From: Bacteroidales bacterium
GTDB taxonomy: Bacteria; Bacteroidota; Bacteroidia; Bacteroidales; UBA932
NCBI GenBank assembly: GCA_017445755.1
Contig: JAFSSE010000014.1
Location: 1-64,000, forward strand
Direction of reading: 5' to 3'
DNA length: 64,000 nt
The translations under genes and the position numbers were made by a program. Below are positions 9,860 through 28,055 of the stretch, one piece after another (the stretch's first letter is position 1; each line of letters begins with the position of its first letter). The notes beneath the pieces were generated by a model. The model had not been told where the DNA came from. It ran no database searches and was given only the letters and a program-made list of their open reading frames with translations.

Positions 9860-11302
9860 ATGGACACAATGAAAACCTGGAACGCCCTAATAATCGATGT
9901 TGACTATTCTCCTTCCGACCCTGGAATCCGCCGGTGTTTTTGCGAACGGACACAGTACAGCAAGAAGGATCTGACCCCCGGGAAACTCCTTTCTTACGAA
10001 GACCCCGGAGGGCTCTTCGGAAGCATTGTGCTCAAGGAATGCGATGATGACAAGGTCGTCCTTACTTATGGCGGCCGGGATTTCGTTCTTCGTGAGGGCA
10101 GCAGCTGGGCCTGCCTTGGAAAAGACGGTCGGAACTACACCGACTTTGAGTTGAATGTATCCCTGCAGCTCGAATACCTGATAGTGAACACGCCGAAGTT
10201 TTTCCGTCAGTTCGGAACAAGGGAGCAGCTCGCCGCGCTTTCAGAGGACGATATCCGGCATTTCGAATCCTCCGATGACCCCTGCGCCAAATTTGTCCTT
10301 GGCCGCTGGCACTACCTGCTGATGCCCCGGGAAGACTCCGCTGTCCTGGCAGAGAAATATATCCGCGAGGCGGTTGAGGGAGGCGTTGCGGATGCTTATG
10401 AGACGCTTTCTTACATGTTTACGGTAGGCGATACCGCCGAGGACACGGTGGATCTTGAAAAAGCGGCACGCCTTAGGGATGAGGCAATTTCCCGTGGCAG
10501 CGAAGCAGCGCGCATGCGCTTTGCCCGTAACCGCATTGCAGGGATACTCCTTGCTCCTGAGGAGCCGGCGGAGGTGGCCCGGGAAATCGAAAAAATACTT
10601 TCGGAGGAGGAAGACCCGAATCCCGGCTGGTACTCGGTGCTGGCCTATGCGTACGAGGTCCTGGGGAAGGCCGAAGAAGCAAAAAAGACGTACGAAGAAG
10701 GCATTGCTCACGGAAGCAAACGCTGCTACTCGGAACTCGCATGCTGGTACAGGGAGCGGGGTATGGAGGAGGAATATGACAAGACGATGGAGGCGGGCAT
10801 CAAGGCCGGTTTCGGATTCTGCTATACCTTTCATGCAGACCTGGACGAGGAGGAGTATGAGAAAAAGACGCCGGAGCTCCAGCGGTATTTCACAAGATTC
10901 ATACGGGACAGGTTACTGCAGGGGCTGAAACGGGGAGACGGAGCATGTGCCTATTATCTCGGGCTGAATTATTTTTACGGGTATCTCGGATTCGAAGACG
11001 AAGAAAGGACAGAGGCGGGGAAATACCTTGAAAGAGGCATGCAGCTGGGAGATTCATGCTGCTATTCCCTTGTCGCTGACATCCTGGAAATGGGTACACC
11101 TTCCGACGAGGACAGGCGCGATGCCGCCCGCTTCCGCCTCAAGGCCCTGCGTCTTGGAAATGACACCGTGCTGAGCAAGGTAATCATTGCCTACAGGCGC
11201 GGCCTTCTGGACAAATACCAGGATGAAATAGAAAAATACTGGCTTCCGGAGGATTACGACGACTACGAAGAGGACGACGGCCGCTTTGATGCATACGTAT
11301 GA
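9860..11302 (+). CDS. Sel1/TPR-like repeat protein, first gene of the signalling operon
   Basis: A protein of about 480 residues with no signal peptide. The N-terminal 110 residues form a beta-rich domain I do not recognise. From about residue 125 the protein consists of helix-pair repeats of Sel1 type: LAEKYIREAVEGGVADAYE, AARLRDEAISRGSEAARMR, AKKTYEEGIAHGSKRCYSE, and GKYLERGMQLGDSCCYS near the end. Sel1 repeats form solenoids that bind partner proteins and often occur in signalling and secretion adaptors. The tail is very acidic. Start choice is between the ATGs at 9860 and 9869; either is close to the promoter. It opens the run of genes leading to the kinase, so an adaptor role in that complex is the natural inference. 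Confidence 0.75.
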   Translation: MDTMKTWNALIIDVDYSPSDPGIRRCFCERTQYSKKDLTPGKLLSYEDPGGLFGSIVLKECDDDKVVLTYGGRDFVLREGSSWACLGKDGRNYTDFELNVSLQLEYLIVNTPKFFRQFGTREQLAALSEDDIRHFESSDDPCAKFVLGRWHYLLMPREDSAVLAEKYIREAVEGGVADAYETLSYMFTVGDTAEDTVDLEKAARLRDEAISRGSEAARMRFARNRIAGILLAPEEPAEVAREIEKILSEEEDPNPGWYSVLAYAYEVLGKAEEAKKTYEEGIAHGSKRCYSELACWYRERGMEEEYDKTMEAGIKAGFGFCYTFHADLDEEEYEKKTPELQRYFTRFIRDRLLQGLKRGDGACAYYLGLNYFYGYLGFEDEERTEAGKYLERGMQLGDSCCYSLVADILEMGTPSDEDRRDAARFRLKALRLGNDTVLSKVIIAYRRGLLDKYQDEIEKYWLPEDYDDYEEDDGRFDAYV

Positions 11303-11324
11303 TAATTATAATAAAACCAATACC

Positions 11325-12125
11325 ATGAATGCTACAGTAAACACCATCATCGCAGTTTATCGCCTTTCCAAGCACTTCATTTTTGCCGACGGCGAAATGA
11401 CTGAAGCGGAAACCAATCCTCTATTCTGTTTCCTCCAGACCTTTCCGGCTATCGACAATGATATGTTCCAGAAGATTATGGCCGATTCCGACACGATGAC
11501 TGACGGTGAGGCGATATCTGAAATCAGGAGACTGGACGACGACGGCAAGCAGCAGATATCCAATCTTTTCGCAAGGATTATTTGCGCAGACGGGGAACTG
11601 ACCGAAGACGAAAGGAACCTTTTTTTCAAGGTGCGCGATCTCTGCGATCTGCCAGACCCCGAAGACGACAGCGAAGAAAAACCTGCCGAAGAGGCATCCT
11701 CGGAAGAAGACCGGATCATTCCTGCCTTCATCCTGGCCAATTTCTATGGAATCGCTTCTGTTCATCAGAGCGAGCACGAAGACTGGAACACCCTTGGCGA
11801 CGAAATCGCTTCCTGGATGGGTTGTGACCGGGTTGAGGTGGTCCGTTATACCCGGCCCCTCAATGCCCTTACCGAGGAGCTCCGTCTCAACGGCCGGCAC
11901 CTTGTGTTCATGGTCGCCCGCAATGGCTACGGCGACAAGACCGTGGGCGACAACATGACCGCGACCCTGCTCTACGGCGGCGGTTACCCGCTTTACGGCA
12001 ACATCGTGTTTGCACTCGAAACCGACCAGGGTTACGAAATCGAAGGATTCCAGACCAGGAGTCTTCTGAATGAGACATTTGAAAAGATAAATAACGCCGT
12101 GGACGGCCTTCTCAGAACGGAATAA
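11325..12125 (+). CDS. TerB-like domain protein with extra C-terminal domain
   Basis: Residues 1-110 resemble the TerB/DjlA-like all-helical fold, with two acidic repeats FADGEMTEAE (near 20) and CADGELTEDE (near 87). These are the paired metal- or ligand-binding loops expected of TerB. A very acidic linker (PEDDSEEKPAEEASSEED) leads into a C-terminal alpha/beta domain of about 140 residues that I do not recognise. TerB domains occur in tellurite-resistance and stress complexes at the inner membrane and are often linked to signalling and phage-response loci. I chose the ATG 11325 over the TTG 11286 because the helical domain starts there. The stop overlaps the next ATG by one base, implying coupled translation. 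Confidence 0.7.
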   Translation: MNATVNTIIAVYRLSKHFIFADGEMTEAETNPLFCFLQTFPAIDNDMFQKIMADSDTMTDGEAISEIRRLDDDGKQQISNLFARIICADGELTEDERNLFFKVRDLCDLPDPEDDSEEKPAEEASSEEDRIIPAFILANFYGIASVHQSEHEDWNTLGDEIASWMGCDRVEVVRYTRPLNALTEELRLNGRHLVFMVARNGYGDKTVGDNMTATLLYGGGYPLYGNIVFALETDQGYEIEGFQTRSLLNETFEKINNAVDGLLRTE

Positions 12126-13042: not shown

Positions 13043-13045
13043 GAT

Positions 13046-16000
13046 ATGCCATCGAACGACGACCTGATGAAAGATCTGAAGGATAAGAAAGCTGCTCCTC
13101 AGAAGACCGCTGTCGCTCCTCAGAAGACCGCCGCTGCACCGCAGAAGACCGCCGCTGCACCGCAGAAGACTGCAGCAGCGCCGCAGAAGACTGCGGCCGC
13201 ACCCCTTTATTCGTCAGCCCTGGATATCAAGCCGGCTGCCGGCGCCCATGCCCCCGGCGATACCGTGAAAGCCGGCGGCAAGAGCTACACAGTTGAAAAG
13301 CTCCTCGGTTCTGGCTCCGAGGGCGACATCTACCTCGTCTCCGACAAGCGCGGGCGCTATGCCCTGAAACTCTGCCATGGCGGATTCAAAACCAATGTAA
13401 AGGTACTTCAGCTGCTTGAAAAACTGAAGGGCAAGGGATATATCGCCGACGTTCTTGCCTACGATGAGACTTTCGAACTCTCGCAGTACTTCCCTGAGGG
13501 CGATGCCGCTCATGCCTCGCTGAAGGGGAACGCCGAAGCCATCCTTGCAATTGCGCTCAAAACAGCGATTACTCTCGATGCCATGCATTCGGCGGGTGTG
13601 CTGCACAAGGACGTGAAGCCCGCCAATATCCTCATAAAGAACCGCGCCAATTACGACAGCGTCCTCTGCGACTTTGGTATTGCGGACATTCTGGACGGGA
13701 AGGGCACCTGCGCTACCCTCCAGGTCCGTACCCCCGTCTATGCGGCTCCGGAGCTCTATACTGATACGGTCGAAATCGGAGGAGAGACCTATATCGAACT
13801 CAGTACAAAGGCGGACTTCTATTCGCTGGGCATGACAATACTCTCGCTCTGGATGGGGGAGGGCGCCTTTATGGCCCAGGAAAAAGCCATGGCCATCGAC
13901 AAGGTGAAAGGCCGTATAGCGGTTCCCGCCGACATGCCCGATCCGCTGGCGAGGATCTGCCGCGGCCTCCTCATCAAGGATCCGGCAAAACGCTGGAACC
14001 TCGATGAGATTGAGCGCACCATGAACGGGGAGGATGTTCTGGTGGACGAGGCCCTCAGGATTGAAGACCTCAAGATTACCTACAACGCCTCCAAACACCA
14101 GATTGCCAATACGCCGGAGGAGCTGGCCACCTTCATGGGCGAAGACCCTGACCTTGCGCTGAAATTCCTCTACAGGGGCCAGGTAGAGCGGTGGCTCAAG
14201 CCCTATCCGGAACTGGCGATGGAGATTCAGGACATCGTGGAGAAACGATATCCAAAGGATCAGACCGTCGGTACCTGGGCGGCCATCTATCTTCTTGACC
14301 CGGCATATACTTTCCCCCTGAACGGTTTTTCCAGGGAAACAGGAGAGGTTGTAAGCACAAGGGCCGTGACCCTCAAGGACGTAAGCAATTTCTTTAACGG
14401 CGCGATTCCCGACAGGGACACCGCGCTCCTTCTCGAAGGGGATATTTTCCGGGAATGGGTACGTGTCCGGAGCAAGGAGGTGGCCTCACGGCTCGCTCCC
14501 TCCGAAGAGTCTGCCGACGTATTCATGCTCCGGATCCAGACGATCGACCCGCTCTCGGACATCAACCTGATTAACGACCCCTCAGATCCCGACTATGCCA
14601 TGACGGGAGAGGGCCTTGGAAGGTTACTGAACAAGATATATCATATATTCTGGAATATCTTCGGCGGGGATGTATTCAAGGTTGCGGCCTACTGGAACGA
14701 AGAAAAATATGCCCCGCTTAACCGGAAGATTCCCGGCGCGACGATAATCTCCGTAGCCATGAACTTCCGCTCTCCGGAAGACTGCCACTATGTGACGGAG
14801 TCGATGGATACCAAGGGGCAGAGGTTTGAAAAGCAGCGCCAGTGGTTCGTGTACTGCACCGATCGCAATTCGGATGATTACCTGAAGAAGGCCGGTCCAA
14901 AGGACGATGTCTTCCGCCCCCAGGCCGCCTGGATGAAGGTCATCAAGGGCTTTGGCGTCACCCCGGAATATACCTTCCTGGACTCCGGGAAAACCTGTAC
15001 CAACCTGGACGAAGTGTTCTCGGAGAGCCGGGACGTTCTCAAGAAAGAGTACGACGAGCGTGGCCTGAGGGGCTTCCTCGCGGTGCATCACCAGGAAAAC
15101 CCCGACGCCGACCTGAGCGCACAGTTTGCCTACGAGGACCTGCTTTATGATTATGTGGAAGACCTTCGTTCAATAGATGCCGGCATCCCCTGCGTGAGTC
15201 GTTTCGACGAGGCCTGCGCCGAAGCGGCCGACATACTTTCGGACGGTAAGGCAAAGGTCGCCGGGTTAAGCATAAAGAGCGTACTTCAGAGGATAGGCAC
15301 CGTGATTTTCGCCTTCATTCCCATGCTGGTTCTCTTCGTGATGCTTGTCTTCTCCATAATAGACAATCCGGTGCTGGAGCCCGGGAAGGTGAGCATTGGT
15401 GGCTGGGTATGGCTGCTGGGCCTTGTGTTCGGTGCGGTTGCCTGGCTGTGGTTCGATTTCGACGGTTGCCTGATTCCTCTTATTATAGGCGTTGTCGCGG
15501 CGGTACTGCTGGAACTGCTTGTAAAACTGCTGGGTGCGTACATCGTGTATATTTTTGCGATAGTGGTCCTGGCCGCCCTGGTGTTCCTGAGCATCAAGAC
15601 CGTGTTCAACACCAGCCAATATGCCAGGAAGGCGCGCAAGTTCACCAAACCCGGCTTTGACGAGGAGGTACTGGAGCCCCTGTACTATGCTTTCAGCGAC
15701 GAGACTTCCTTCGATTCCTCCCTTAACGGGGCGTTCAACGACAATGAGATAGAAAACTGGAGGGATGACCTTAAGAGGCGCCGTTTCTTCATGTGGATTT
15801 TCATCGGTACGGCCTGGCTGCTTATCCTATTGAGCATCCTGGTGCCGAAGAGTCCGCGCTTTGAACGGCTCACAGCCCCGCTGACAGAGAAGATAGAAAA
15901 CCTGTTCTCCAGCAAAGCGCCCAAACTCATAGGGGCGTACAGCTTGAAGGAAGGGGACAGCGGGGAGGACGTGAAGGCCCTCCAGAGTTTCCTGAAAGCG

Positions 16001-16399
16001 GCGGGCTATACCAAGAACAAGCCCGACGGAAACTACGGTGCAGGTACCTCCAAGGCGGTGTCGGCTTTCCAGCTCTCGGCGGGACTCGACATCACGGGTG
16101 AAGCCGACCATAAGACTGTCCGGGCCATCAATCGGACGGATATTGCGAAGGGTCTTGTTGACGGCAGCTATAAGCCGGCCGAAGCCCCGGCCTCAAAGGC
16201 GGCTACCCCGGCTAAAAAGCCCGCAGCTTCTGCTTCAAAGGCAGCAACCCCTGCGGCCTCTAAAGCTTCAACGCCGGATACCCCGACCAGGAAGATGGCG
16301 GCCCCGAAGCCGGCGGTTCCGGAGGACTCCGGGCTCAGCATAACTGTGGAACAGTTGAAGGAAGTCGCTGCGTCAAAGAAAAAGAATGAAGAACAGTAA
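13046..16399 (+). CDS. Membrane Ser/Thr protein kinase with C-terminal peptidoglycan-binding domain
   Basis: An 1117-residue Hanks-type kinase. Residues 15-53 are a tandem repeat of the heptad APQKTAA. The kinase domain spans about 80-330 and looks fully active: glycine loop LGSGSEGDIYLV (87-98), lysine K108 in YALKLC, catalytic HKDVKPAN with D189 and N194, DFG at 209-211, and an APE-like AAPELY. Residues 350-745 are a large region I do not recognise. Five hydrophobic helices follow (about 750-855 and 915-935), then a PG_binding_1 domain at about 965-1030 and an Ala/Lys/Pro-rich tail. With the kinase inside, an odd number of helices puts the murein-binding domain in the periplasm, so the kinase could sense the cell wall. 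PP2C and FHA genes lie two genes downstream. Confidence 0.9.
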   Translation: MPSNDDLMKDLKDKKAAPQKTAVAPQKTAAAPQKTAAAPQKTAAAPQKTAAAPLYSSALDIKPAAGAHAPGDTVKAGGKSYTVEKLLGSGSEGDIYLVSDKRGRYALKLCHGGFKTNVKVLQLLEKLKGKGYIADVLAYDETFELSQYFPEGDAAHASLKGNAEAILAIALKTAITLDAMHSAGVLHKDVKPANILIKNRANYDSVLCDFGIADILDGKGTCATLQVRTPVYAAPELYTDTVEIGGETYIELSTKADFYSLGMTILSLWMGEGAFMAQEKAMAIDKVKGRIAVPADMPDPLARICRGLLIKDPAKRWNLDEIERTMNGEDVLVDEALRIEDLKITYNASKHQIANTPEELATFMGEDPDLALKFLYRGQVERWLKPYPELAMEIQDIVEKRYPKDQTVGTWAAIYLLDPAYTFPLNGFSRETGEVVSTRAVTLKDVSNFFNGAIPDRDTALLLEGDIFREWVRVRSKEVASRLAPSEESADVFMLRIQTIDPLSDINLINDPSDPDYAMTGEGLGRLLNKIYHIFWNIFGGDVFKVAAYWNEEKYAPLNRKIPGATIISVAMNFRSPEDCHYVTESMDTKGQRFEKQRQWFVYCTDRNSDDYLKKAGPKDDVFRPQAAWMKVIKGFGVTPEYTFLDSGKTCTNLDEVFSESRDVLKKEYDERGLRGFLAVHHQENPDADLSAQFAYEDLLYDYVEDLRSIDAGIPCVSRFDEACAEAADILSDGKAKVAGLSIKSVLQRIGTVIFAFIPMLVLFVMLVFSIIDNPVLEPGKVSIGGWVWLLGLVFGAVAWLWFDFDGCLIPLIIGVVAAVLLELLVKLLGAYIVYIFAIVVLAALVFLSIKTVFNTSQYARKARKFTKPGFDEEVLEPLYYAFSDETSFDSSLNGAFNDNEIENWRDDLKRRRFFMWIFIGTAWLLILLSILVPKSPRFERLTAPLTEKIENLFSSKAPKLIGAYSLKEGDSGEDVKALQSFLKAAGYTKNKPDGNYGAGTSKAVSAFQLSAGLDITGEADHKTVRAINRTDIAKGLVDGSYKPAEAPASKAATPAKKPAASASKAATPAASKASTPDTPTRKMAAPKPAVPEDSGLSITVEQLKEVAASKKKNEEQ
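13091..13203 (+). repeat. 21-bp in-frame tandem repeat in the kinase gene
   Basis: About five tandem copies of a 21-base unit encode the heptad APQKTAA near the kinase N-terminus. Copies differ mainly at third codon positions, so the array has been stable long enough to drift. Copy number could vary between strains. Confidence 0.85.
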
Positions 16400-16405: not shown

Positions 16406-19400
16406 ATGATCTGTAAGAATTGCGGAAAGGATAATCGCCAGGAGGCACGCTACTGCCGCTTTTGCGGGGCGGAGCTCGAAAAGGCATCTACCGGGAAGGG
16501 GCTGATCGCGAAAGATCAGATCCTCCAGGAGCTGGATGAGTTCGACAGAAAGCTCAAGGTGGCGAAAGAGCTTGCGGGCGGCACCCGTATCGGGCTGGAC
16601 TGCCTTATCCTTGGAGACTCCGGTTCCGGAAAGAGTTTCATCGCGCACCTTATAGCGGACAGAATTATGGCGGCAGGCGTTGTGAAACAGCCACTCAAGG
16701 AAGTGGACGCCGCCGACTGGGCGGAGTTCCTTGGCGACTTCGACAAGAAGATGTCCTCCCTGAAGGGCGGGCTCCTTCTCATAACCAACGCTCAGAAGCT
16801 CCTTCCCGCCACCAAGGCCTCGGATGTGAACCAGCTCGACAAGCTCTTTAAACACATGCGTAACACCGAGGGGGCGCCCATCGTGCTGCTCTGCGGTCTT
16901 AGGATAGATCTATCCCAGTTCCTGGAGAACAATAAGGACGTCCACCGTCTCTTCGAATTCGACTTCCAGCTGCCGGCCTTTACCCTGGACGACCTGACCC
17001 AGCTGACGCTCCTGCTTCTAAAGGAAAAATACAAGGCCGAAATTTCCGACGACCTACCAGCCAGGCTCGGCGCCCATTTCGCATGGTACATGCGCCAACA
17101 GGATGTCGGCCATACCAACGGGCATCTTGCCGAAAAGGTGGCGGAAGATATCTATGTGAGGTCCAAATACCGCGGCAGCAAGGTCGTGGAGGCCATGGAC
17201 ATCGACACCGCCGAGTGTTTCATTCCCAAGAGCGAAGAAGATATTCTTTCTGAACTCGACGCCTTCGTGGGCATGCAAAGCGTCAAGGATAAGCTGCGTG
17301 CCATCATAAAGAATATCCATGCGCGCAAGGAACATGGGGTGGGGGACAAGCTTCTCAAGGACCATTATATCTTTACCGGTAATCCCGGAACCGGAAAAAC
17401 CACCTTAGCCCGCAAGTTCGGCGAAGTGCTCAGCGCCATAGGCGCCCTGCCCACTGGCCAGTTCATAGAGATTTCCGGCAAGGACCTCATCGGCCAGTTC
17501 GTGGGCGACAGCGAAGCCAATGTGAAGCGCTATGTGAACAAGGCCATGGGAGGCGTCCTTTTCATCGACGAAGCATACGCCCTTAAAGGCAGCGGCGGCG
17601 AAAAGGGAAGTTATGGCATGGACGCCGTGAATACCCTTCTGACCCTGCTGGAGAACCGCAAGGGCGAGTTCGTCTGCATCATGGCGGGTTATACCAAGGA
17701 GATGGCGGACTTTGTTCGCATGAATCCCGGCATTCCGTCCCGCTGCAACGTCACCATCGAATTCCCGGACTACAACGCGCGGGAACTGGAGAGAATCTTC
17801 CTCCAGATGCTTAAGAAGAATGACGAGGGCGTAGTATATACCCTGGACGCCGATGCCGAGGAAATGCTTCCCAAGCTCTTCGACCGCATGTATTTGAAGC
17901 GCGGCGACACCTTTGGCAATGCCCGCGCAGTGAGAAATCTTTTCGACGAAACTCTCGAGCGCCATAATGCCAGGAGCAGCTCAGACACTATTCTCAGCTA
18001 CGCCGACATCGTGGGTGAAGACGCTAAGGGAGAGATTTCCGTGGAAGACATAATGAAAGAGTTCGACGACTTCGTTGGCATGGAGTCCGTGAAGGAAGCC
18101 ATGCGGCGGATCGTGAAGGAAGTGGCCGTTCAGAAAAAGCTCATCGAGATGGGAGAGGCCGCAGAGGGGCTCACCAAATACAATTTCATCCTCACCGGCA
18201 ATCCCGGAACGGGCAAGACCACGGTAGCTCGCATCTTCGGGCGGATCTTCAAGGCCCTGGGCGTGACGTCCACTGACCGTGTCACCGAGAAGGTGCCGGA
18301 CCAGATCCTTAGCCAGTATATGAACGAGTCGTCCAAGAACATGAACGACGCCATCAACGAGGCCATGGGCGGTGTGCTCTTCCTGGACGAGGCCTATGGC
18401 ATAGAGCCCATGGACGACGCCGGGCGCAGTACCAGCCCCGAAGGCCGGGATGCCATTAAACTCCTCATGACCCGCATGGAGAACGAGGCCGGCAAGTTCG
18501 TGGTGATTTGTGCCGGCTATCCCAGGGAGATGGAAACCTTCATGAATTCCAACCCGGGCCTGAGGCGCCGTTTTTCGCATACCATCCACATCGACGACTA
18601 CTCGGCCGAAGAGCTCCTCGAGATTTACGAGCGTGCAGCCAAGGCCAAGAAATATAATTTCTCCCTTGCCGACGACGCGGCCCGGACCAAGGCCCTGAAC
18701 ATGTTCCGGACCATGGTCGCGATGAAGGACGACAAGTTCGGAAACGCCGGCGAGGCCATGAAGAAGGTGGCCGAAACAAAGACCAACATCAACAACCGCA
18801 TCCAGCGGATACCCTATGACCAGTGGACGCCTGAGGTCCTCCAGACGGCCCGGTTGGCCTATGCGGAGGATATTCCCTACGAGGAACCGGAGAAGATTTC
18901 TGTCGAGGAGTGCCTTAAAGAACTGAACATGCTCGTGGGCCTTTCCGGAGTCAAGACCTCCCTCACCAAGCTGGCTCATACCATCAACAACGAAATTGAG
19001 GCGGCAAAGCTTGAGAATCGCCGCCCTGAGATTCCGCTGGGCCATTATCTCTTCCTCGGTAATCCCGGGACGGGAAAGACCACGGTGGCGCGCCTCATGG
19101 GGAAGATCCTCTATTCCATGGGAGCGCTTCCTACGCCTACGGTTGTCGAGGTGGACAAGAGCAAGCTGGTAGGCCGGCATATGGGTACCACTGAAGCCAT
19201 CACCTCGCATGTCATCGACACCGCCATGGGCGGCATCCTCTTCATCGACGAGGCCTACCAGCTCGCGCCGAACACCGCTTACGACGGGTACGAGAAAGAT
19301 GCGCTGGATACCCTCCTCAAGCGCCTTGAGGACGACCGGGGCAAGTTCGTGTGCATTGCGGCCGGATATACCTACGAGATGCAGGCCTTCATCCAGGCGA

Positions 19401-19714
19401 ACAGCGGTATAGAGTCCCGGTTCCCTCAGCGGAACTGGATTACATTCGAGGACTACACCCCCGGCGAGCTCTTCGACATTTTTATGATTTATGCCCGGAA
19501 GGGTGGATATACCCTGGATCCCATGGCTGAGAACGCCGTCCGCGGGAAGCTGACGATGATGTACAACAACCGCGGCCGCAGTTTCGGTAACGGACGTGAG
19601 GCCCGTAACCTCTTCGACGAGGTGAAGAGCAACCTCGCGGCCCGTCTCGCCGAGGACGGCAACCCCCATACTCCCGAAGAACGTAAGACCATAATGATGG
19701 AGGACGTGTTATGA
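16406..19714 (+). CDS. Zinc ribbon plus four-P-loop AAA+ ATPase (CbbX/SpoVK type)
   Basis: An 1102-residue protein. Residues 1-25 form a zinc ribbon (CKNCGKDN and CRFCGAE). Then come four nucleotide-binding modules. The first has Walker A GDSGSGKS at 70-77, but its Walker B strand reads GGLLLITNAQ with no acidic pair, so it may bind without hydrolysing. The other three, near residues 326, 598 and 885, carry the canonical GNPGTGKT followed by Walker B LFIDEAYAL, LFLDEAYGI and LFIDEAYQL. They match the CbxX/CfqX (CbbX, SpoVK) family of AAA+ remodelling ATPases. CbbX remodels Rubisco; other relatives act in sporulation and secretion. Three tandem copies make a large remodeller, whose substrate is probably a partner in this operon. 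The stop overlaps the FHA gene start by four bases. Confidence 0.9.
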   Translation: MICKNCGKDNRQEARYCRFCGAELEKASTGKGLIAKDQILQELDEFDRKLKVAKELAGGTRIGLDCLILGDSGSGKSFIAHLIADRIMAAGVVKQPLKEVDAADWAEFLGDFDKKMSSLKGGLLLITNAQKLLPATKASDVNQLDKLFKHMRNTEGAPIVLLCGLRIDLSQFLENNKDVHRLFEFDFQLPAFTLDDLTQLTLLLLKEKYKAEISDDLPARLGAHFAWYMRQQDVGHTNGHLAEKVAEDIYVRSKYRGSKVVEAMDIDTAECFIPKSEEDILSELDAFVGMQSVKDKLRAIIKNIHARKEHGVGDKLLKDHYIFTGNPGTGKTTLARKFGEVLSAIGALPTGQFIEISGKDLIGQFVGDSEANVKRYVNKAMGGVLFIDEAYALKGSGGEKGSYGMDAVNTLLTLLENRKGEFVCIMAGYTKEMADFVRMNPGIPSRCNVTIEFPDYNARELERIFLQMLKKNDEGVVYTLDADAEEMLPKLFDRMYLKRGDTFGNARAVRNLFDETLERHNARSSSDTILSYADIVGEDAKGEISVEDIMKEFDDFVGMESVKEAMRRIVKEVAVQKKLIEMGEAAEGLTKYNFILTGNPGTGKTTVARIFGRIFKALGVTSTDRVTEKVPDQILSQYMNESSKNMNDAINEAMGGVLFLDEAYGIEPMDDAGRSTSPEGRDAIKLLMTRMENEAGKFVVICAGYPREMETFMNSNPGLRRRFSHTIHIDDYSAEELLEIYERAAKAKKYNFSLADDAARTKALNMFRTMVAMKDDKFGNAGEAMKKVAETKTNINNRIQRIPYDQWTPEVLQTARLAYAEDIPYEEPEKISVEECLKELNMLVGLSGVKTSLTKLAHTINNEIEAAKLENRRPEIPLGHYLFLGNPGTGKTTVARLMGKILYSMGALPTPTVVEVDKSKLVGRHMGTTEAITSHVIDTAMGGILFIDEAYQLAPNTAYDGYEKDALDTLLKRLEDDRGKFVCIAAGYTYEMQAFIQANSGIESRFPQRNWITFEDYTPGELFDIFMIYARKGGYTLDPMAENAVRGKLTMMYNNRGRSFGNGREARNLFDEVKSNLAARLAEDGNPHTPEERKTIMMEDVL

Positions 19715-20175
19715 TACAGTGCCCAGAATGCAGGAGCATGATTCCCGATGACAGCGCCTTTTGCGACCAGTGCGGGAAGGAACTTAAGTGGTGTCCTGAG
19801 TGCGGACGCCCGAAACGCGGCGCTGAGTGCCCGGTCTGCGGGAGCGACCTTGTGCCCGGACGCAAATGGCTCGCCGGCGCTTCTGGGGGTACACCTCCTG
19901 CCTCTGCGCTGGTGGGAAACGGGTGGCGCATGACGCTGCAGCCCGGCCAGTTCGGGAGGGGAGGCGGCATCTGGCCTGAACTCGGCAGCTGCCCCTATGT
20001 ATCGGGCCTGCACGGACAGATCTCAGAAGGCCCCGGGGGCTGTTGGAACATCACCGACGTCGGCTCTACCAACGGAACCTTTGTGGACGGAATACGCCTT
20101 CAGAGCGGAGTCGCCACGCCCCTTAAGAAGGGCTCGAAAGTTCGAATTGCAACCCTTGATTTTATCGTAGAATGA
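19711..20175 (+). CDS. Double zinc-ribbon FHA-domain protein
   Basis: A 154-residue protein with two zinc ribbons (C4/C7 with C18/C21, and C28/C31 with C40/C43) followed by an FHA domain at about 72-154. The phosphothreonine-binding elements are present: GR in FGRGG (81-85), the S and H in YVSGLHG (96-102), and STNGT at 119-123. FHA domains read phosphothreonine, here presumably marks placed by the kinase encoded upstream. The ribbons resemble those of the AAA+ and zinc-ribbon proteins. The gene overlaps both the AAA+ and PP2C genes by four bases, so the phospho-reader, remodeller and phosphatase are made in a coupled way. Confidence 0.92.
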   Translation: MIQCPECRSMIPDDSAFCDQCGKELKWCPECGRPKRGAECPVCGSDLVPGRKWLAGASGGTPPASALVGNGWRMTLQPGQFGRGGGIWPELGSCPYVSGLHGQISEGPGGCWNITDVGSTNGTFVDGIRLQSGVATPLKKGSKVRIATLDFIVE

Positions 20176-20906
20176 AACTTGAAATCCAGGCGCTTTGCCA
20201 AAAAGGCCTTGTCCGGCAGAACAACGAAGATGCCCTTTCCGTAGGCGGGCTCTTCCTTCGCGATGATTCTACAGAAATCACCGTGAATACGCCCGAAGAC
20301 GGCTTTTTCTACCTTCTTGTCGCCGACGGTATGGGTGGACACGAAAACGGGGAGGAGGCGAGCAGCTTCGCCCTTGATGAAATCAAGGAGCAGCTGGTCA
20401 TGCACCAGGTCCAGCCGGATTCCTTCGAGGACGACATACGCGAGGCGGCCCGCTACATTGCCTTCAAGCTGAACCGCGCCGCAGCCGACCGCGGGCAGCA
20501 AAAGCCCATGGGCTGCACCCTGAGCGGAGTCATCTGGCACTACGGCCGCATCTGGCTCCTCAATGCCGGCGACAGCCGGACCTACCGCTTCCGGGAGGGC
20601 ATTCTCCGTCAGCTCACCACCGATGAGACCGAACGCGGCCTGACCGGCGACCCCGAAGGGAGCAAGCTGCTGCTGAACTGCCTCGGAGGCGGCTGCGAAG
20701 GCCGCCTTACGGTGGACGACCTGGAGGGGAAACTGCTCCCCGGAGATATCCTTCTCGTCTGCTCCGACGGCCTGACGGACATGGTCCCTGACGAAGAAAT
20801 CGAGACCGCCCTCGGCGAAGGGGCCGGAGCCGGCGACCTTTACCGTATGGCCTGCGAAGGCGGAGGAATGGACAACACTTCAATTATCCTTGCTAAAATA
20901 TTATAA
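20172..20906 (+). CDS. PP2C-family Ser/Thr protein phosphatase
   Basis: A 244-residue cytoplasmic phosphatase with all PP2C metal-binding motifs: RQNNEDA with E19 and D20, VADGMGGHENG with D52, GCTLSG near 114, NAGDSR at 131-136, CSDGLTDMV with D199, and MDNTS with D234. Length and motif order match stand-alone bacterial PP2C enzymes, which use two or three Mn/Mg ions to remove phosphate from Ser/Thr. It should oppose the kinase encoded by the same operon. There is no regulatory extension. The start overlaps the FHA gene stop (ATGA). Confidence 0.95.
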   Translation: MKLEIQALCQKGLVRQNNEDALSVGGLFLRDDSTEITVNTPEDGFFYLLVADGMGGHENGEEASSFALDEIKEQLVMHQVQPDSFEDDIREAARYIAFKLNRAAADRGQQKPMGCTLSGVIWHYGRIWLLNAGDSRTYRFREGILRQLTTDETERGLTGDPEGSKLLLNCLGGGCEGRLTVDDLEGKLLPGDILLVCSDGLTDMVPDEEIETALGEGAGAGDLYRMACEGGGMDNTSIILAKIL

Positions 20907-20916: not shown

Positions 20917-21444
20917 ATGAAAAAATTACGAATAATTTTCCTGCTTTCCCTTGTGGCCCTGATGGGCTTCACGTCTTGTTCCAAGAGCAAGAAACGGGAG
21001 AAGATTACGGACCCCGTTCAGCAGGAAGCCCTGAGAACCCGAAATCAGGACATCCCTGTTGATTCCCTGTTTACGGCGACCGCTCTCCGCGAGATTGCCT
21101 CTCCCTTCAAGAAGATTTCCATCAAGAAACTCTTTACCGAAGTGAAGGCCTCCTGGAAGGTGTCGGCGGAAAATGCTACCCGCGAGAAGTATGCAAAAGA
21201 AAAGCTCGTAAGAAAGGACAAGATGAAGGAAGATGCTGCGAAAAAAGCCGCTGCAAAGGCCTCAGCCGAGGATATGGCGGAGTTTAAGGCATCTTTTACG
21301 GAACGTGTGTCCGTAACCTTCAGAGACCTCCCGGCCGAGGGCTACAGCCCCTCGCTCACCATCTATTTCCTTGTGGTACTCGTCGCCTTTGCGATTATCT
21401 TTACCATAAGGGTCATCAAGGCATTCTTCATCTCACCTAAATAA
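20917..21444 (+). CDS. Lipoprotein-type protein with C-terminal membrane helix
   Basis: A 175-residue protein. The N-terminus is basic then hydrophobic and ends in LMGFTSC, a good lipobox. The middle is helical, charged and lysine-rich (AKEKLVRKDKMKEDAAKKAAAKA). Near the C-terminus a clear membrane helix (IYFLVVLVAFAIIFTIRVI) is followed by a short basic tail. A lipid anchor at one end and a helix at the other would pin the central coil across or along the periplasmic face. I do not recognise the family. I start at the ATG 20917 because the signal sequence begins there. It separates the soluble phosphorylation genes from the membrane components, eleven bases after the PP2C stop. Confidence 0.7.
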   Translation: MKKLRIIFLLSLVALMGFTSCSKSKKREKITDPVQQEALRTRNQDIPVDSLFTATALREIASPFKKISIKKLFTEVKASWKVSAENATREKYAKEKLVRKDKMKEDAAKKAAAKASAEDMAEFKASFTERVSVTFRDLPAEGYSPSLTIYFLVVLVAFAIIFTIRVIKAFFISPK

Positions 21445-23146: not shown

Positions 23147-26100
23147 ATGGAAAACTCTTGCTGGCGCCGATATAATATCTTCATCTCCTCGACTTTCAAG
23201 GACATGGATTTCGAGCGGGATGTCATCAAGTTCAAGGTCATCCCCGCCCTTAACCGCCGGTTCAGGGATCGGAGGGTGGAGCTCCAGGCGATAGACCTTC
23301 GCCTCGGGGTGAACACCTCGAAGATGTCGGAGGAAGAGAGTGAACGCAAGGTTCTTTCCGTCTGCACGAGCTGCATCGACAGCGCCCGGCCCTTTTTCAT
23401 CGGGCTCATCGGGAGGCGCTATGGCTGGATTCCGCCAGTGGAGCGCTGGAAGGAGTTCACCCTCCGCCTGAGCCCCGAGGAGAAGGAACTCCTTTCGGGC
23501 ACTGCCGGCTGCTCCGTCACGGAAATGGAAATCGTTTACGGGGCGCTTTCGCAGGGCAGTTTCGATACCTCCCATGTGCTGTTCTTCCTTCGTGACGAGG
23601 AGTCCTATGACGGGATGCCGGAGGACCTGCTACCCACTTTCTGCGACTCCGACCCCGAAAACCTCCTGAAGCTGGAAGCCCTGAAGGGAAAGGTCCGCCG
23701 GCTCTTTGGAGAGCGCGGCGGTGAGGATGATCGCTGCCTGCCATACCATCTGAACTGGACGGACGGCGGCTTTTCGTCCGATGAGTTCGAGAAGATGGTG
23801 GAAGAGCAGCTCGCCGCCCAGATTGAGGCGGAAACGGCGCGAGAGGAGAAAGAAGGAGCAGATTCGTGGTGGGCCCAGGAAAAGGAACTCGAGGAATCAA
23901 CCCTTCTTCGGCTTCTACCCGGGTCGATCGAACTGGACATTTACGACGACGAGGACGCTTCCGAGGATGAGGAAACATCCTCGTCGGACGTTGCCATCTG
24001 GTATGTGCAGGGCTTTGGAGCCAGTACCCGCATGGCCCAGGACTATGTTCGGTGGGACGAAGATACGGACGTTATACGCCTTCTTGGCGTCTTCGGCCTC
24101 TCCGAGTACAGCTCTTCGATGCGTCCCGTCCTTGCCCGCTGGATCCATGAAATAGCAGAAAAAACCGGCCGGGAAAAGCTTCCGGATGATGAGCTTCTGC
24201 TTGGGAAAATGCCGGAAACGGAGCTTTACAGACTCTTCGAGGAGGTGGTGAATGAGGCCGCGGGGAACTTCTATCTCTACATTTATCTTGATGATGTCGA
24301 GGCGCTTGAGACGTCTTCGCCAAAGGACCTCTACATGACCTGGCTGGACCATGTCAAGGACAGGGTGAATGTCATAATCAACCTTCAGGACGGCTCCGAA
24401 GCGCGCGGGAAGTTCTTCCAGCAGCATACCTACCTTTCGAAAAAGCTCATGCTCGGGGTGATGAACGACCGAGAAGCGGCCGGGCATCTTATTGAAAACT
24501 ACGAGAAAACCTATTTCCTCGAGCTTCCTGAAAAGATCAAAAAGGAAATGCTCCGGATAATCGACAGGGGAAAAGTGCTTCCTACTCTGAAGATTCACAG
24601 CGTTTTCCGCGTCTTTGAATCCCTGACCCAGGAGGATTTCGCTGAGATCCGGGGACGACGGGGCAGCCAGATAGATGCCATCAATGCCTATCTTGAAGAG
24701 ATTTGGAAGAAAATGCCCGAAGCCCCGTATGATGTCATGACCTTCATGGTGAATGCGATCTTGAAGAACCTCCGCCTCGGAGAGGGGATGCGGGAGGCCG
24801 TATGGACCATAGCTGCGGCCCCGGGAGGCCTCCGCGAGAGGGACATCGCCCACTTTGCGGGAGACGACTGGGACGAGGTGCAGTTCTACCGCGCCATGAA
24901 TTTCCTCCATGATTTCTTCTACGAAGACCGCGCCCGGCACCTCTGGAGGTCCAAATACATCACCCGTGTTGAGGATGGACTTGGAGGAAGGCAAAAGACC
25001 ATCTCCGAATATGTCATGACCCTTGACCCGAGGGATTCGCTCCGCGAGACGATGGGCCTCTACTATGCCCTCGGTGGCTGCGTGCCCTCGCATTTTGCCG
25101 CCTATATGGTTGAGGGGGACTACCTCCATGGCCAGCAGATGAAGGACCTTACCCGGCTCCACGGCCCCCAGATCAGGCAGCTGCTGAGGGAGGGCTTCCT
25201 GGACAGCAAAGACTTTGAAAACTACTGCAAGGCACTGCCCACAGGGCAGCGGCTCCAGCTCATGATGGATATCATCACGGCCCTTGCCGACCTCGAGGAG
25301 GACCGTAGGCGAATCCATTCGAAAATGGCCCTCTGGCTCTCAGACATCAATCCGGAAGGGCTCTCGGGCGTTGATGCATTCACCCTTGCGAGCGTCCTTT
25401 CCGGACAGAACGAAGACGAAAAGCTGATGGAAAAGGCGCTGGAAGCGGCCCGCCGGTGCAGGGACCTCGAATTCGAGACTTCGGAGCAGCTTCTGACCAT
25501 GGTTTCCAGCATCCTGATGATGATATATCAGAAGAAGGGTCGGGAGGATAAACTCCGGAAACTTCAGGAGGTTATGGCCTCCGGGCAGAAAGAGGAGGGC
25601 GCAAAAGAGCGGTTTACGGCCCTCTACCCCCTGGTGGCCCAGTCCATGGGAAAAACGCCCGAGGAGCGTAAAAGCATTCTGAGCTCCTTCTTCAAGCAGT
25701 ACTACGAAATCGTTGAGGACCTCGAAGTGAATACCGAGAACTTCAAGGCACGTTTTTCATCGTCCAAAGTGATTCTCGGCGCCTTCATGCTGCTTGAGCA
25801 GGATAAGCGCTACGAGTGGCTCATCATCGCACTGATGGACTTCATGCCCTCGATGCGTCTCTTCTACAGAGCAGGGAATTTCTTTTCCTATCCCGAGGCC
25901 CTCGAACTTCACGTCCGCTTCCACATTATGCTGGTGATGGCCTGCTATAACTATCTGGAGGAAAAAGGGCTTTTCAAGGACTGGGACGAAGAGGAACTCC
26001 ACCCGCTTCAGCGGATCCAGGCCCTTTCGACCATCGCTACGGCCGAAGGAGGAGAACTCCTGAAGGATGCCGATCCGGACAATCCGCTCGTCGGGCAGCT

Positions 26101-26236
26101 TCGAACTCAGCTCTCCAATCTTGTCAGCGGGACTGACAACCTTCGTAAGGAGTTCCTGAACGAAGAGACAGACATAAAAGACATAGACAAAAGGATAACG
26201 GATATATACGATGAATTCCTTGAAACGCAGAATTGA
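23147..26236 (+). CDS. DUF4062 protein with degenerate STAND-like NTPase
   Basis: A 1029-residue protein. Residues 7-95 are a clear DUF4062 domain: NIFISSTFKDMDFERD, then AIDLRLGV, then FFIGLIGRRYGWIPP. In NPHP3, TEP1 and many bacterial STAND proteins this domain stands before a NACHT-like NTPase. Here the corresponding P-loop near residue 285 reads QGFGASTRMA, without the GK-S/T that binds phosphate, while a Walker B-like strand YIYLDDVEAL remains near 378. The NTPase therefore looks inactive or altered. The long C-terminal half is helical with repeat-like helix pairs, as in STAND sensor arms. The last 26 bases overlap the RCK-RyR gene. A scaffold or sensor role in the operon's complex is likely; effector activity cannot be claimed. 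Confidence 0.85.
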   Translation: MENSCWRRYNIFISSTFKDMDFERDVIKFKVIPALNRRFRDRRVELQAIDLRLGVNTSKMSEEESERKVLSVCTSCIDSARPFFIGLIGRRYGWIPPVERWKEFTLRLSPEEKELLSGTAGCSVTEMEIVYGALSQGSFDTSHVLFFLRDEESYDGMPEDLLPTFCDSDPENLLKLEALKGKVRRLFGERGGEDDRCLPYHLNWTDGGFSSDEFEKMVEEQLAAQIEAETAREEKEGADSWWAQEKELEESTLLRLLPGSIELDIYDDEDASEDEETSSSDVAIWYVQGFGASTRMAQDYVRWDEDTDVIRLLGVFGLSEYSSSMRPVLARWIHEIAEKTGREKLPDDELLLGKMPETELYRLFEEVVNEAAGNFYLYIYLDDVEALETSSPKDLYMTWLDHVKDRVNVIINLQDGSEARGKFFQQHTYLSKKLMLGVMNDREAAGHLIENYEKTYFLELPEKIKKEMLRIIDRGKVLPTLKIHSVFRVFESLTQEDFAEIRGRRGSQIDAINAYLEEIWKKMPEAPYDVMTFMVNAILKNLRLGEGMREAVWTIAAAPGGLRERDIAHFAGDDWDEVQFYRAMNFLHDFFYEDRARHLWRSKYITRVEDGLGGRQKTISEYVMTLDPRDSLRETMGLYYALGGCVPSHFAAYMVEGDYLHGQQMKDLTRLHGPQIRQLLREGFLDSKDFENYCKALPTGQRLQLMMDIITALADLEEDRRRIHSKMALWLSDINPEGLSGVDAFTLASVLSGQNEDEKLMEKALEAARRCRDLEFETSEQLLTMVSSILMMIYQKKGREDKLRKLQEVMASGQKEEGAKERFTALYPLVAQSMGKTPEERKSILSSFFKQYYEIVEDLEVNTENFKARFSSSKVILGAFMLLEQDKRYEWLIIALMDFMPSMRLFYRAGNFFSYPEALELHVRFHIMLVMACYNYLEEKGLFKDWDEEELHPLQRIQALSTIATAEGGELLKDADPDNPLVGQLRTQLSNLVSGTDNLRKEFLNEETDIKDIDKRITDIYDEFLETQN

Positions 26237-28055
26237 CCGCATCCTCTCCGAGGGAGAGGGTAAACAGCTTGCATGGCTTGCCGGCATCGCCCTGGCGCTG
26301 TTTCTCGTACTGGCTCTTCTTGGCGGCCTCTGGGCCCTTGGCTGGACGGAAGTCCTAAACCTGTATCTTGATCCGGGCGGCTTCCCTTTGGAGGCCAGGA
26401 AAGGCAGTCAGGGGGCGCTAAATATTTTCAGCATAGTGATTTCCTTCGGCGGCGTCCTGGTGCTCAATGCACTGACCGTCTCCGCCTTTTCCAATGTTTT
26501 TGACAATATTTCTGAAAAATACCGCCGGGGCGAGCGGCGTTATAAGCTCAGGGACCATGTGCTGATCCTCGGTGGAGGACAGCACCTCGTGGATATGCTC
26601 CTGGCCCTTCGAGATGGAAGCGATTTCGACGGAAAGGACATCGTAGTGATGACCTCGGCCGACGTGGAGACGCTCCGGGGCGAAGTCGAGACTGCGCTCG
26701 GCGATCCCCGCTTCTCGTCTCGCATCATCTGGTATCGCGGAGAAAGGGATAACCGGGAGCAGCTCGAAAGCGCCTGCGCGGCAGCTGCGTCCATTATCTA
26801 TGTCATCGGAGAAGACGGCGAGAGAGTCCATGATTCAGTCTCCGTCGCTGCCCTTGACTACCTAAGGGATATCTGCGCGGGCGAAGGACCGGCTCTTCCC
26901 TGTTATGTTACCCTGGACATGCACACCAGTCTCGACGTGCTGTCCTATCTTCCGAAGGACACCTCTTCCCGTCTTCAGGTTGAGCTGCTGAATACCAACG
27001 ACTACCTTGCCGAGCAGATTCTTGTCGGGTCGCCCTTCCTGCCTGTCCCGGGAGCGGGGGAGACGCTTCACATCGTGATTGCGGGCATGACCAGTATCGC
27101 CCGGTCAATTGCCACAGTGGCCGCCCAGATCTGCCATTTCCCGGCCGATCCTGCCCTTCCGAGAAAAACCGTAATATCCTTCGTCGGGGATAATATCCGC
27201 GAGGAGGCCGATATTTTTATCGCCAACCACCGGAACCTCTTCGAGTTGTCGCACTATAGCTTCATTGTTCCCGGAACCCCTGTCGAGGACCATGCTCCCG
27301 ACAAGGCCTTCGGAGATTTTCTGGATATAGAGTGGCGGTTCATCGACAGCCATACCTCTTCTCCCTTTGTAAGGGACATGCTGCTGGACCTTGCCGGAGA
27401 CCCTTCGAAAAAGCTCGCAGTTCTCTTCTGTTACGACAGCGACGATGCCAATATTTCGGCCTCTCTGCATCTTCCTGTTGAAGTTTATGAGGCGGGAATA
27501 CCGGTTGCCGTATATCAGAGGAGCCGTGACGAAATCCTCCGGAAGGCCGCCATTTGCGGGCAGTTCAACTCAGTTACCGTTTTCGGTGAGGCCCTCGAAG
27601 GGACGGATGCCCTCTTTCTCAACCGGTCGCTGAGGGGGAAACGAGTCAACTATCTCTATGCCCTCCAGTACAATGATCCCAAGCCCGCCTCGGAAGACGA
27701 GGCCTGGAACGGACTCTCCCACGCCCATAAGCTTTCAAGCATAGCGAGCGCGGCCTCCATCCCCATGAAGCTTCGGGCCTTCGGCCTTGATCCAACCCGG
27801 GAGTCAGTCGCTTCGCTTAGCCCTGAGGCGCTGGAGTCCTTATCGGAGGTCGAACACCGCCGCTGGATGGTTTCGGCCCTTCTCATGGGCTACCGCGCCA
27901 TGCCTCTTCCCGGGCGTTCCGACCGAAGCCGCTTCAAAGAGCTGAAGAACGAGAAGTTCATCCACCTTGACATAGCCCCATACGAAGAACTGGATCGCCA
28001 CGAAGCCGGTAAAGACACCACCATCGTGACCAATATTCCGTACATTCTTTCCTAA
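26211..28055 (+). CDS. Membrane RCK/TrkA-N protein with C-terminal RyR domain
   Basis: A 614-residue protein. Two hydrophobic helices (about 20-45 and 68-95) flank a short loop. From about 113 a Rossmann-type RCK/TrkA-N domain begins with HVLILGGGQHLVDML; a second nucleotide-binding-like unit starts near 283 (LHIVIAGMTSIARSI). The C-terminus, about 535-605, matches the RyR domain: SEVEHRRWMVSALLMGYRAM, then a charged helix and FIHLDIAPYEEL. A tract before it (HAHKLSSIASAASIPMKLRAFG) is typical of the linker preceding prokaryotic RyR domains. The layout recalls RCK-gated ion channels but lacks an evident pore loop. RyR domains are thought to bind small ligands, so it may be the ligand sensor or effector of the operon. 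Confidence 0.85.
   Translation: MNSLKRRIDRILSEGEGKQLAWLAGIALALFLVLALLGGLWALGWTEVLNLYLDPGGFPLEARKGSQGALNIFSIVISFGGVLVLNALTVSAFSNVFDNISEKYRRGERRYKLRDHVLILGGGQHLVDMLLALRDGSDFDGKDIVVMTSADVETLRGEVETALGDPRFSSRIIWYRGERDNREQLESACAAAASIIYVIGEDGERVHDSVSVAALDYLRDICAGEGPALPCYVTLDMHTSLDVLSYLPKDTSSRLQVELLNTNDYLAEQILVGSPFLPVPGAGETLHIVIAGMTSIARSIATVAAQICHFPADPALPRKTVISFVGDNIREEADIFIANHRNLFELSHYSFIVPGTPVEDHAPDKAFGDFLDIEWRFIDSHTSSPFVRDMLLDLAGDPSKKLAVLFCYDSDDANISASLHLPVEVYEAGIPVAVYQRSRDEILRKAAICGQFNSVTVFGEALEGTDALFLNRSLRGKRVNYLYALQYNDPKPASEDEAWNGLSHAHKLSSIASAASIPMKLRAFGLDPTRESVASLSPEALESLSEVEHRRWMVSALLMGYRAMPLPGRSDRSRFKELKNEKFIHLDIAPYEELDRHEAGKDTTIVTNIPYILS

What the first reader, a model, noticed from the sequence alone, without database searches (positions are those of the whole stretch)
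9860..28055. Eleven-gene membrane-linked phospho-signalling cluster with kinase, PP2C, FHA, AAA+, TerB, DUF4062 and RyR proteins
Seen: eleven tightly packed plus-strand genes, many overlapping by 1-26 bases. They encode a Sel1 protein, a TerB-like protein, a zinc-ribbon protein, a Ser/Thr kinase, a four-P-loop AAA+ protein, an FHA protein, PP2C, an anchored lipoprotein, a CxxCxGxG membrane protein, a DUF4062 protein and an RCK-RyR protein. Known: kinase, FHA and PP2C are writer, reader and eraser of Ser/Thr phosphorylation; TerB, DUF4062 and RyR domains are frequent in bacterial stress and conflict loci. Inference: one complex that senses a cell-wall or small-molecule cue and remodels a partner at the membrane. 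I know no named system with this gene set.
Basis: partly seen in the sequence, partly recalled or inferred. Interest (0 to 1): 0.92.

Follow-up and report, generated by a model that had tools for sequence, protein, structure and literature searches.

The report
Kinase cassette beside NADase–channel pair
In gut Bacteroidales, a compact protein-phosphorylation gene set lies next to a gene pair that looks like an NAD-cutting immune enzyme and a membrane channel carrying the domain that reads NAD-derived messengers, which would be a bacterial counterpart of NAD-to-channel signalling in animal cells.

Summary
The eleven plus-strand genes at 9860-28055 are real and tightly packed (junctions -26 to +25 bases). 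Two conserved modules lie inside. Module 1, g3-g7 (zinc ribbon, 5-TM Ser/Thr kinase, four-P-loop SpoVK/EccA-like AAA+, zinc-ribbon FHA, PP2C), recurs in the same order in other families of the order without the other six genes. Module 2 is the g10-g11 pair. g10's DUF4062 domain is a TIR-like NADase by homology to human TEP1 (solved structure, E 2e-20), with the catalytic Glu kept (E128; 14 of 14 sequences compared). g11 is a two-helix, pore-loop, RCK protein related to CASTOR/DMI1 channels, with a divergent C-terminal RyR domain that keeps the four residues with which a phage RyR protein holds cyclic ADP-ribose. Elsewhere in the order, 14 of 30 RCK-RyR loci have a TIR or DUF4062 gene within 5 kb (22 of 30 counting separate RyR genes), against 0 of 13 CASTOR-like loci lacking RyR. 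Best reading: the NADase makes an ADP-ribose signal, the RyR-RCK channel answers, and the phospho cassette sets the trigger. The pair is well supported; its wiring to the cassette is inferred.

The parts
9860..11302 (+). g1: repeat (TPR/Sel1-like) protein, accessory
   Evidence: orthologues at the head of the cluster in L036, L149, L153, L154
11328..12125 (+). g2: TerB-like protein, accessory
   Evidence: Pfam TerB 1.9e-5; orthologue upstream of g3, directly or with one or two genes between, in ten other loci: L036, L104, L111, L149, L150, L153, L154, L155, L156, L157
12125..13042 (+). g3: double zinc-ribbon protein, first gene of the five-gene core
   Evidence: Pfam DZR 5e-10; conserved order
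13046..16399 (+). g4: Ser/Thr kinase (catalytic domain 13286-14011), about five TM helices by hydropathy (15305-15844), PG_binding_1 domain (15959-16129)
16406..19714 (+). g5: zinc ribbon plus four P-loop motifs, SpoVK/EccA/CbbX-like AAA+
19711..20175 (+). g6: double zinc ribbon plus FHA
20172..20906 (+). g7: PP2C phosphatase, last gene of the core
20917..21444 (+). g8: lipoprotein-like with C-terminal TM helix, accessory
   Evidence: lipobox-like FTSC and hydropathy; orthologues in L026, L031, L033, L104, L149, L151, L153, L154
21455..23134 (+). g9: CxxCxGxG zinc-binding membrane protein, accessory
23147..26236 (+). g10: DUF4062 TIR-like NADase domain (23159-23704; catalytic Glu codon 23528-23530), degenerate STAND-like region (about 23999-24556), helical remainder
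   Evidence: Pfam DUF4062 2e-9; TEP1 TIR-like domain 11gz 2e-20; residue conservation; coordinates
26211..28055 (+). g11: two-TM channel-like RCK protein; pore-like LDPG 26367-26378, RCK about 26547-27020, RyR domain 27792-28049
   Evidence: CASTOR/DMI1 hits, profile comparisons, iterated RyR profile; coordinates
8573..9802 (-). divergent MORN-repeat gene; a homologue also lies beside the cluster in L150, L156, L157
   Evidence: Pfam MORN 1e-21

Best explanation
A two-part membrane signalling locus. Part 1 (g3-g7) is a reversible Ser/Thr phosphorylation cassette: a transmembrane kinase writes, the FHA protein reads, PP2C erases, and a SpoVK/EccA-like AAA+ machine remodels what the FHA protein brings. 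Zinc ribbons on g3, g5 and g6 probably hold the parts together. Part 2 (g10-g11) is an output pair: g10, a TIR-like NADase, turns NAD+ into ADP-ribose or a relative of it when triggered; g11, a CASTOR-like RCK channel, binds that product through its RyR domain and opens, arresting the cell. In this clade the cassette is placed beside the pair to set the trigger (envelope damage or phage attack). Shown by sequence: gene order, domains, catalytic and ligand residues, association of the RCK-RyR family with TIR/DUF4062/RyR genes. Inferred: the ligand's identity, channel activity, control of g10 by the cassette, and the physiological trigger.
For: g10 matches the TEP1 TIR-like domain at 2e-20. TEP1 E1008, R976, R954 and R908 (PMC13174449) fall on E128, R91, K68 and K18; E128 and R91 are the same in 14 of 14 sequences compared, window included. 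DUF4062 proteins are NADases and some act against phages (same paper). g11: the family profile's best solved-structure hits are CASTOR (1e-8) and DMI1 (3e-7), over the RCK part. Profile-profile probability to CASTOR-like proteins of other Bacteroidota: 99.0 whole, 96.7 TM/pore part alone, 96.2 first RCK alone; the kinase and g9 membrane families gave at most 2.7. D54, P55, G56 of the pore-like loop are kept in 20, 20 and 23 of 23. RyR: 97.2 against separate RyR proteins and 2e-5 in an iterated search with no decoy. H549, W552, H585, D602 are kept in 19/21, 21/21, 21/21, 20/20 ungapped rows, at the places of H75, W78, H100, D117 of the cADPR-binding phage RyR protein (PMC13232231). Association: TIR or DUF4062 gene near 14 of 30 RCK-RyR loci versus 0 of 13 CASTOR-like loci without RyR (p 0.003); 22 of 30 versus 0 of 13 with separate RyR genes (p 6e-6). 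Among 15 window-type g11 loci (L022-L034, L036, L113) DUF4062 is adjacent in 14. Linkage to the cassette: of 14 genomes with a close g5, g10/g11 lie on the same contig in 9, on other contigs that end near by in 3, and are not found in 2, in two arrangements (same strand, or convergent).
Against: The cassette exists without g10-g11 in other families and in G009 and G089, and the pair or its parts exist without the cassette, so neither needs the other. 9 of the 14 linked-count genomes were found only through g11, which inflates linkage, and most are close relatives. DUF4062 proteins tested in the paper gave plain ADP-ribose, whereas phage RyR proteins were tested on cyclic ADPR, so the ligand match is not settled. 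One window-type g11 (L034) has no DUF4062 beside it; 16 of 30 RCK-RyR loci have no TIR or DUF4062 gene near by and 8 of 30 have none of the three. Pfam's RyR model does not reach g11 in the window; only 3 of 23 family members match it at E 0.5 or better, best 0.043. The second Rossmann-like region of g11 did not match CASTOR (0.1), and PF06241 has no match in this genome. Beyond CASTOR and DMI1 the structure hits are weak (E 0.05 or worse, an unrelated SMC1A entry among them). No PADLOC model matches g10 or g11; among ten upstream flanking proteins PADLOC gave only an exonuclease-type candidate model and HTH matches; the downstream flank was not scanned.
Confidence: 0.45

Rival explanations
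1. Two independent neighbours. The phospho cassette does its own (perhaps envelope) job; g10-g11 is a separate NAD-signalling pair that has settled beside it in one clade.
For: Core alone in G110, G632, G722, G021 and G009, G089; pair or g11 without the cassette beside it in L029, L034, L042. G021 has both, on different contigs.
Against: They stay adjacent through a strand inversion (L022-L025 and L150 convergent; window, L031, L036, L153 co-directional). Co-occurrence holds in relatives without the window genome (4 of 10 core genomes also have a g11 relative, 14 of 149 overall; p 0.008), though this counts related genomes.
Confidence: 0.3
2. g10 is a NAD+-depleting effector on its own (Swarozyc-like) and g11's RyR domain is a safety device that binds or cleaves the signal, not a channel gate.
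For: The DUF4062 protein tested in E. coli kills by NAD+ loss (PMC13174449); phage RyR proteins degrade or sequester cyclic ADPR (PMC13232231); equivalents of the catalytic dyad, H549 and D602, are present in g11.
Against: A sponge or glycosidase needs no TM helices, pore-like loop or RCK; those are conserved and CASTOR-related. Separate RyR genes, which would suit that role, occur beside g11-like genes.
Confidence: 0.12
3. Housekeeping envelope or division signalling without any defence role; in the window and in G009 the cluster sits near division and cell-wall genes.
For: Window 34-53 kb and L104 15-20 kb hold genes that I read by eye (no family search) as gltX, ftsZ, ftsA and mur genes; PG_binding_1 on the kinase; the only kinase match of the Pfam model in the genome.
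Against: Patchy: kinase middle region in 6 of 386 genomes of the order, kinase in 11 of 150 relatives, window genome included in both; PG_binding_1 on 4 of 11 kinases; other genomes carry the cluster beside different genes. A NADase is an odd housekeeping part.
Confidence: 0.13

Closest known systems
Swarozyc and TEP1 (DUF4062 TIR-like NADases; PMC13174449, parts 1-2 of 6 and searched passages read)
   Same: DUF4062 domain, catalytic Glu and active-site basic residues; as in TEP1, a NACHT/STAND-like region follows
   Different: The Klebsiella protein acts alone, with a small winged auxiliary domain that binds phage portal. g10 has a STAND-like region without the P-loop lysine, a long further part, and a channel-like partner gene
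Thoeris (TIR signal maker plus ADPR-signal-activated effector; starts of abstracts in search listings seen)
   Same: Two-gene logic: NAD-consuming TIR-type enzyme beside a protein with an ADPR-type sensor domain; several partners of g11-like genes match Pfam ThsB_TIR
   Different: No SIR2, SLOG or Macro effector seen; the sensor is RyR, the effector looks like an RCK channel; the enzyme here is DUF4062
CASTOR/DMI1 (POLLUX) ion channels
   Same: TM helix, DPG pore-like loop, TM helix, linker, RCK
   Different: PF06241 mid region not found in the genome; g11 carries a C-terminal RyR domain
Phage RyDEP and animal RyR R12 domains (PMC13232231, parts 1-2 of 6 and searched passages read)
   Same: RyR domain family and the four ligand residues
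   Different: RyDEP is a free phage protein that removes the signal; here the domain is fused to a membrane RCK protein in a bacterium
T6SS threonine-phosphorylation cascade (PpkA/PppA/Fha/ClpV; recalled)
   Same: kinase, PP2C, FHA and AAA+ logic
   Different: no T6SS sheath gene (PF05943) found in the genome; AAA+ is SpoVK/EccA type
Ter / TerY-P stress systems (recalled) and the kinase-zinc ribbon-PP2C-vWA theme of GAP1-N2 systems (PMC7159879, searched passages)
   Same: TerB, PP2C, kinase, zinc ribbon
   Different: no TerD in the genome; no vWA among the listed matches of the cluster

Membership tests
DUF4062 TIR-like NADase | DUF4062 domain with catalytic Glu | tested here: met
   Pfam 2e-9, 11gz 2e-20, E128 in 14 of 14 sequences
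DUF4062 TIR-like NADase | NAD(P)+ hydrolysis | not testable with these tools
   needs protein
Swarozyc | winged portal-binding auxiliary domain after DUF4062 | tested here: inconclusive
Thoeris | ThsA-type effector (SIR2, SLOG or Macro) | tested here: not met
   no such match listed for the cluster's proteins (one search left out g8, one search left out g6; g5 lists were cut at 25)
CASTOR/DMI1 channel family | TM pair with pore-like loop plus RCK related to CASTOR | tested here: met
CASTOR/DMI1 channel family | Castor_Poll_mid (PF06241) region | tested here: not met
   no match in G000
RyR domain (PF02026) | sequence match to the domain | tested here: met
   not by Pfam's own model; by profile-profile 97.2 and iterated search 2e-5, no decoys
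RyR domain (PF02026) | ADPR-ligand residues His, Trp, His, Asp | tested here: met
   H549, W552, H585, D602
Ter system | TerD-family protein in the genome | tested here: not met
   genome about 83% complete
T6SS phospho-cascade | T6SS sheath gene in the genome | tested here: not met
   genome about 83% complete
PknB/PASTA kinase | extracellular PASTA repeats | tested here: not met
   no PASTA match for g4; PG_binding_1 instead

The most novel reading that the evidence does not exclude
Bacteria have a two-gene NAD-to-channel pathway: a TIR-type NADase (canonical TIR or DUF4062) makes an ADP-ribose signal that opens a CASTOR-like RCK channel through a fused RyR domain, the arrangement animals use with NAD-derived messengers and RyR/TRPM2 channels; in some Bacteroidales this pathway has been placed under a kinase/FHA/PP2C/AAA+ cassette.
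Probability: 0.35. Interest if true: 0.93.

Novelty: new variant of a known kind. Interest (0 to 1): 0.8.

Why it matters
If true, it adds a channel effector with a ryanodine-receptor-type sensor to NAD-based bacterial immunity, and makes testable the question of where the RyR ligand-reading domain of animal calcium channels came from. It also names a five-gene phospho-signalling cassette, conserved in order across families of one bacterial order, for which the papers searched gave no description.

Tried and rejected
Single eleven-gene system: rejected as too strong, because the five-gene core and the g10-g11 pair each occur without the other. Ter system and T6SS cascade: marker genes not found. 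Known defence system: no PADLOC model for g10 or g11; PADLOC matches of the kinase and AAA+ look generic. Mobile element: no tRNA in the window; cluster GC 0.54-0.59, like the downstream flank (0.51-0.58), above the upstream flank (0.41-0.53); no plasmid match of g11, one partial 29.5% phage-record match, two plasmid matches limited to the DUF4062 end of g10. Bacteroides-type promoter scan (recalled consensus): 13 matches against 8.9 expected, not informative. Pfam RyR search of the own genome: silent, and silent in all 14 controls, so uninformative. A first TIR count included a false hit in L206, which Pfam reads as a kinase; the count was cut from 15 to 14 of 30. The MEM600 gene beside g10 in L022-L024, L026, L030, L149, L151, L153 has a RyR end (Pfam 1.5e-6 in L024); it matches g11 only in the C-terminal part (94.5), not in the membrane part (2.4).

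Limits of the counts. Genes in fetched loci came from a home-made codon-usage ORF picker that missed some small or overlapping genes (FHA above all); tblastn and family profiles were used beside it. Dropped before the 30-locus count: L039 (same place as L194), L047/G125 (5-kb contig), G760 (not fetched), the window genome and the window-type loci (L022-L036, L113). Flanks were unequal and some contigs short. 13 of the 14 CASTOR-like loci were fetched. The TIR and RyR profiles were seeded from 7 of the 30 loci; without these the counts are 9 of 23 and 15 of 23 (p 0.014 and 9e-5). The CASTOR-like set used 11 of the 19 loci looked at, since one search kept only + strand ORFs. The two order draws may not hold the same genomes.
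Full report
What is there. The eleven genes lie at 9860-28055 on the + strand of a Bacteroidales-type genome (2.18 Mb, 83% complete; relatives found by g11 are Bacteroidales MAGs, several with rumen in the title). Junctions run from a 26-base overlap to a 25-base gap.

Module 1, the phospho cassette. g3 (zinc ribbons), g4 (kinase, about five TM helices by hydropathy), g5 (zinc ribbon and four P-loop motifs, SpoVK/EccA/CbbX type), g6 (zinc ribbon and FHA) and g7 (PP2C) recur in this order in G632, G722 and G021, and in G110 with one short AAA-like ORF between g5 and g6. G110, G632 and G722 belong to other families of the order. G696 and G101 (two more families) show the first part on short contigs, in G101 with another ORF between g4 and g5; in G017 the kinase sits at the other end. 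No match to g1, g2, g8, g9, g10 or g11 profiles lies beside the core in L233, L235 or L108. A profile of the kinase's middle region finds it in 6 of 386 genomes of the order, the window's included: ordered but rare. Kinase, PP2C and FHA motifs are intact. The peptidoglycan-binding end is on 4 of the 11 kinases examined, so it is a variable part. In the window's clade the core gathers accessory genes: g1, g2, g8, g9, a DUF1963 protein and an M48-peptidase/TerB-like protein that the window itself lacks, and a divergent MORN gene. DUF1963 also follows the core in G110 and G009, where g10-g11 are not beside it.

Module 2, the pair. g10 begins with DUF4062. The only convincing solved relative is the TIR-like domain of human TEP1 (11gz, 2e-20). 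The numbering fits: if the 220-residue chain starts at residue 894, chain positions 15, 61, 83 and 115 are Arg, Arg, Arg and Glu, as R908, R954, R976 and E1008 of the paper require, and they align with K18, K68, R91 and E128 of g10. E128 and R91 are the same in all 14 sequences compared; K18 is Lys or Arg in 13, K68 is Lys in 11. PMC13174449 (parts 1-2 of 6 and searched passages) reports that DUF4062 domains hydrolyse NAD+ and that some protect bacteria from phages. After the domain comes a STAND-like region. Its P-loop lysine is alanine in the 9 close sequences (window included), lysine in L042 and L046, and Ile, Ser or Thr in L113, L116 and L117. So NTP control of the enzyme looks lost here, which would leave room for another trigger such as the cassette (inference).

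g11 has two TM helices separated by a loop with LDPG, then an RCK domain, a second Rossmann-like region, and a RyR end. Against solved structures the family profile hits CASTOR and DMI1 channels (1e-8, 3e-7), over the RCK part; all further hits are weak, E 0.05 or worse. The CASTOR family model matched 21 of 296 genomes of the phylum; 11 sequences from the 19 loci looked at were aligned. Profile comparison with g11 gave 99.0, the membrane part alone 96.7 with the DPG loops aligned, the first RCK alone 96.2, the second Rossmann-like part 0.1; kinase and g9 families gave at most 2.7. The RyR end is below Pfam's reach in g11 itself. It is supported by profile comparison with separate RyR proteins and MEM600 ends (97.2; three separate RyR proteins match Pfam at 4e-34 to 1e-37) and by iterated search: window residues 537-608 appear at 2e-5 in the second round, with no reversed decoy at E up to 10. 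PMC13232231 (parts 1-2 of 6 and searched passages; [quoted passage not shown] by motif spacing these are H549, W552, H585 and D602 here.

Independent association. In 393 genomes of the order the g11 profile found two kinds of relative: RCK-RyR proteins, and CASTOR-like proteins matching only about the first 260 positions. I fetched up to about 9 kb on each side and added nine loci. A TIR or DUF4062 gene lies within 5 kb of the RCK-RyR gene in 14 of 30 loci; counting separate RyR genes, 22 of 30. None of 13 CASTOR-like loci has any of the three. Of ten new partner calls checked by Pfam nine were confirmed, several also by the Thoeris ThsB model, and one was false and removed. One locus, L042, holds TIR, two separate RyR genes, RCK-RyR, DUF4062, a PrsW protein and an ADP-ribosylglycohydrolase together. 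This supports an NAD/ADPR role for the family apart from the window cluster.

Are the modules linked? Of 14 genomes with a close g5 orthologue (5, 9), the kinase is directly upstream in 13; in G006 it is on another contig. g10/g11 are on the same contig as the core in 9, on other contigs in 3 (G448, G453, G454, whose core contigs end in or near genes that neighbour g10-g11 elsewhere), and not found in 2 (G009, G089). Nine of the 14 were found only through g11. Two arrangements exist: co-directional (window, L031, L036, L153) and convergent (L022-L025, L150). Of 12 genomes fetched through g11, 9 have a close g5, against 7 of 150 relatives with over 1000 bits (p 1e-8), but these genomes are related. 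Genome-level co-occurrence without the window genome: 4 of 10 core genomes also have a g11 relative, 14 of 149 overall (p 0.008), and 2 of 5, 22 of 385 overall, in the order draws (p 0.03). So: a real but not obligatory partnership.

Novelty. Paper searches listed no description of a RyR-RCK channel partnered with TIR or DUF4062 enzymes, nor of the five-gene cassette; lists were capped and the library lacks many subscription papers. I recall that comparative-genomics work from the Aravind group proposed RyR domains as sensors in nucleotide-centred conflict systems, but that paper is not held.

Noticed in passing
L042:204-12022: One island with a TIR-hexapeptide protein, two separate RyR genes, RCK-RyR, DUF4062, a PrsW protease and an ADP-ribosylglycohydrolase: a dense ADPR-signalling locus.
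   Followed up: partly
L024:817-2787; also L022, L023, L026, L030, L149, L151, L153: A second membrane protein with a RyR end (MEM600) beside g10, in several loci on the opposite strand; its middle looks Rossmann-like by eye, its TM part is unlike g11's.
   Followed up: partly
L036:18762-19391, L104:14150-14779, L108:18930-19574: A DUF1963 protein accompanies the cassette in more than one family of the order; role unknown.
   Followed up: partly
L037:2474-15504: RCK-RyR gene with a TIR gene upstream and, downstream, a tubulin-like protein and a papain-family protease protein.
   Followed up: no
L024:8359-9582, L150:10572-11777, L152:138-1373: An M48 metallopeptidase with a sub-threshold TerB match follows PP2C in the convergent arrangement.
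   Followed up: no
window 34343-53292: Genes read by eye as gltX, ftsA/ftsZ and mur genes lie downstream of the cluster; G009 (L104) has a similar neighbourhood.
   Followed up: no
L029:2469-7001: A bacterial alpha-2-macroglobulin gene directly upstream of a g10-g11 pair in a genome without a close g5.
   Followed up: no
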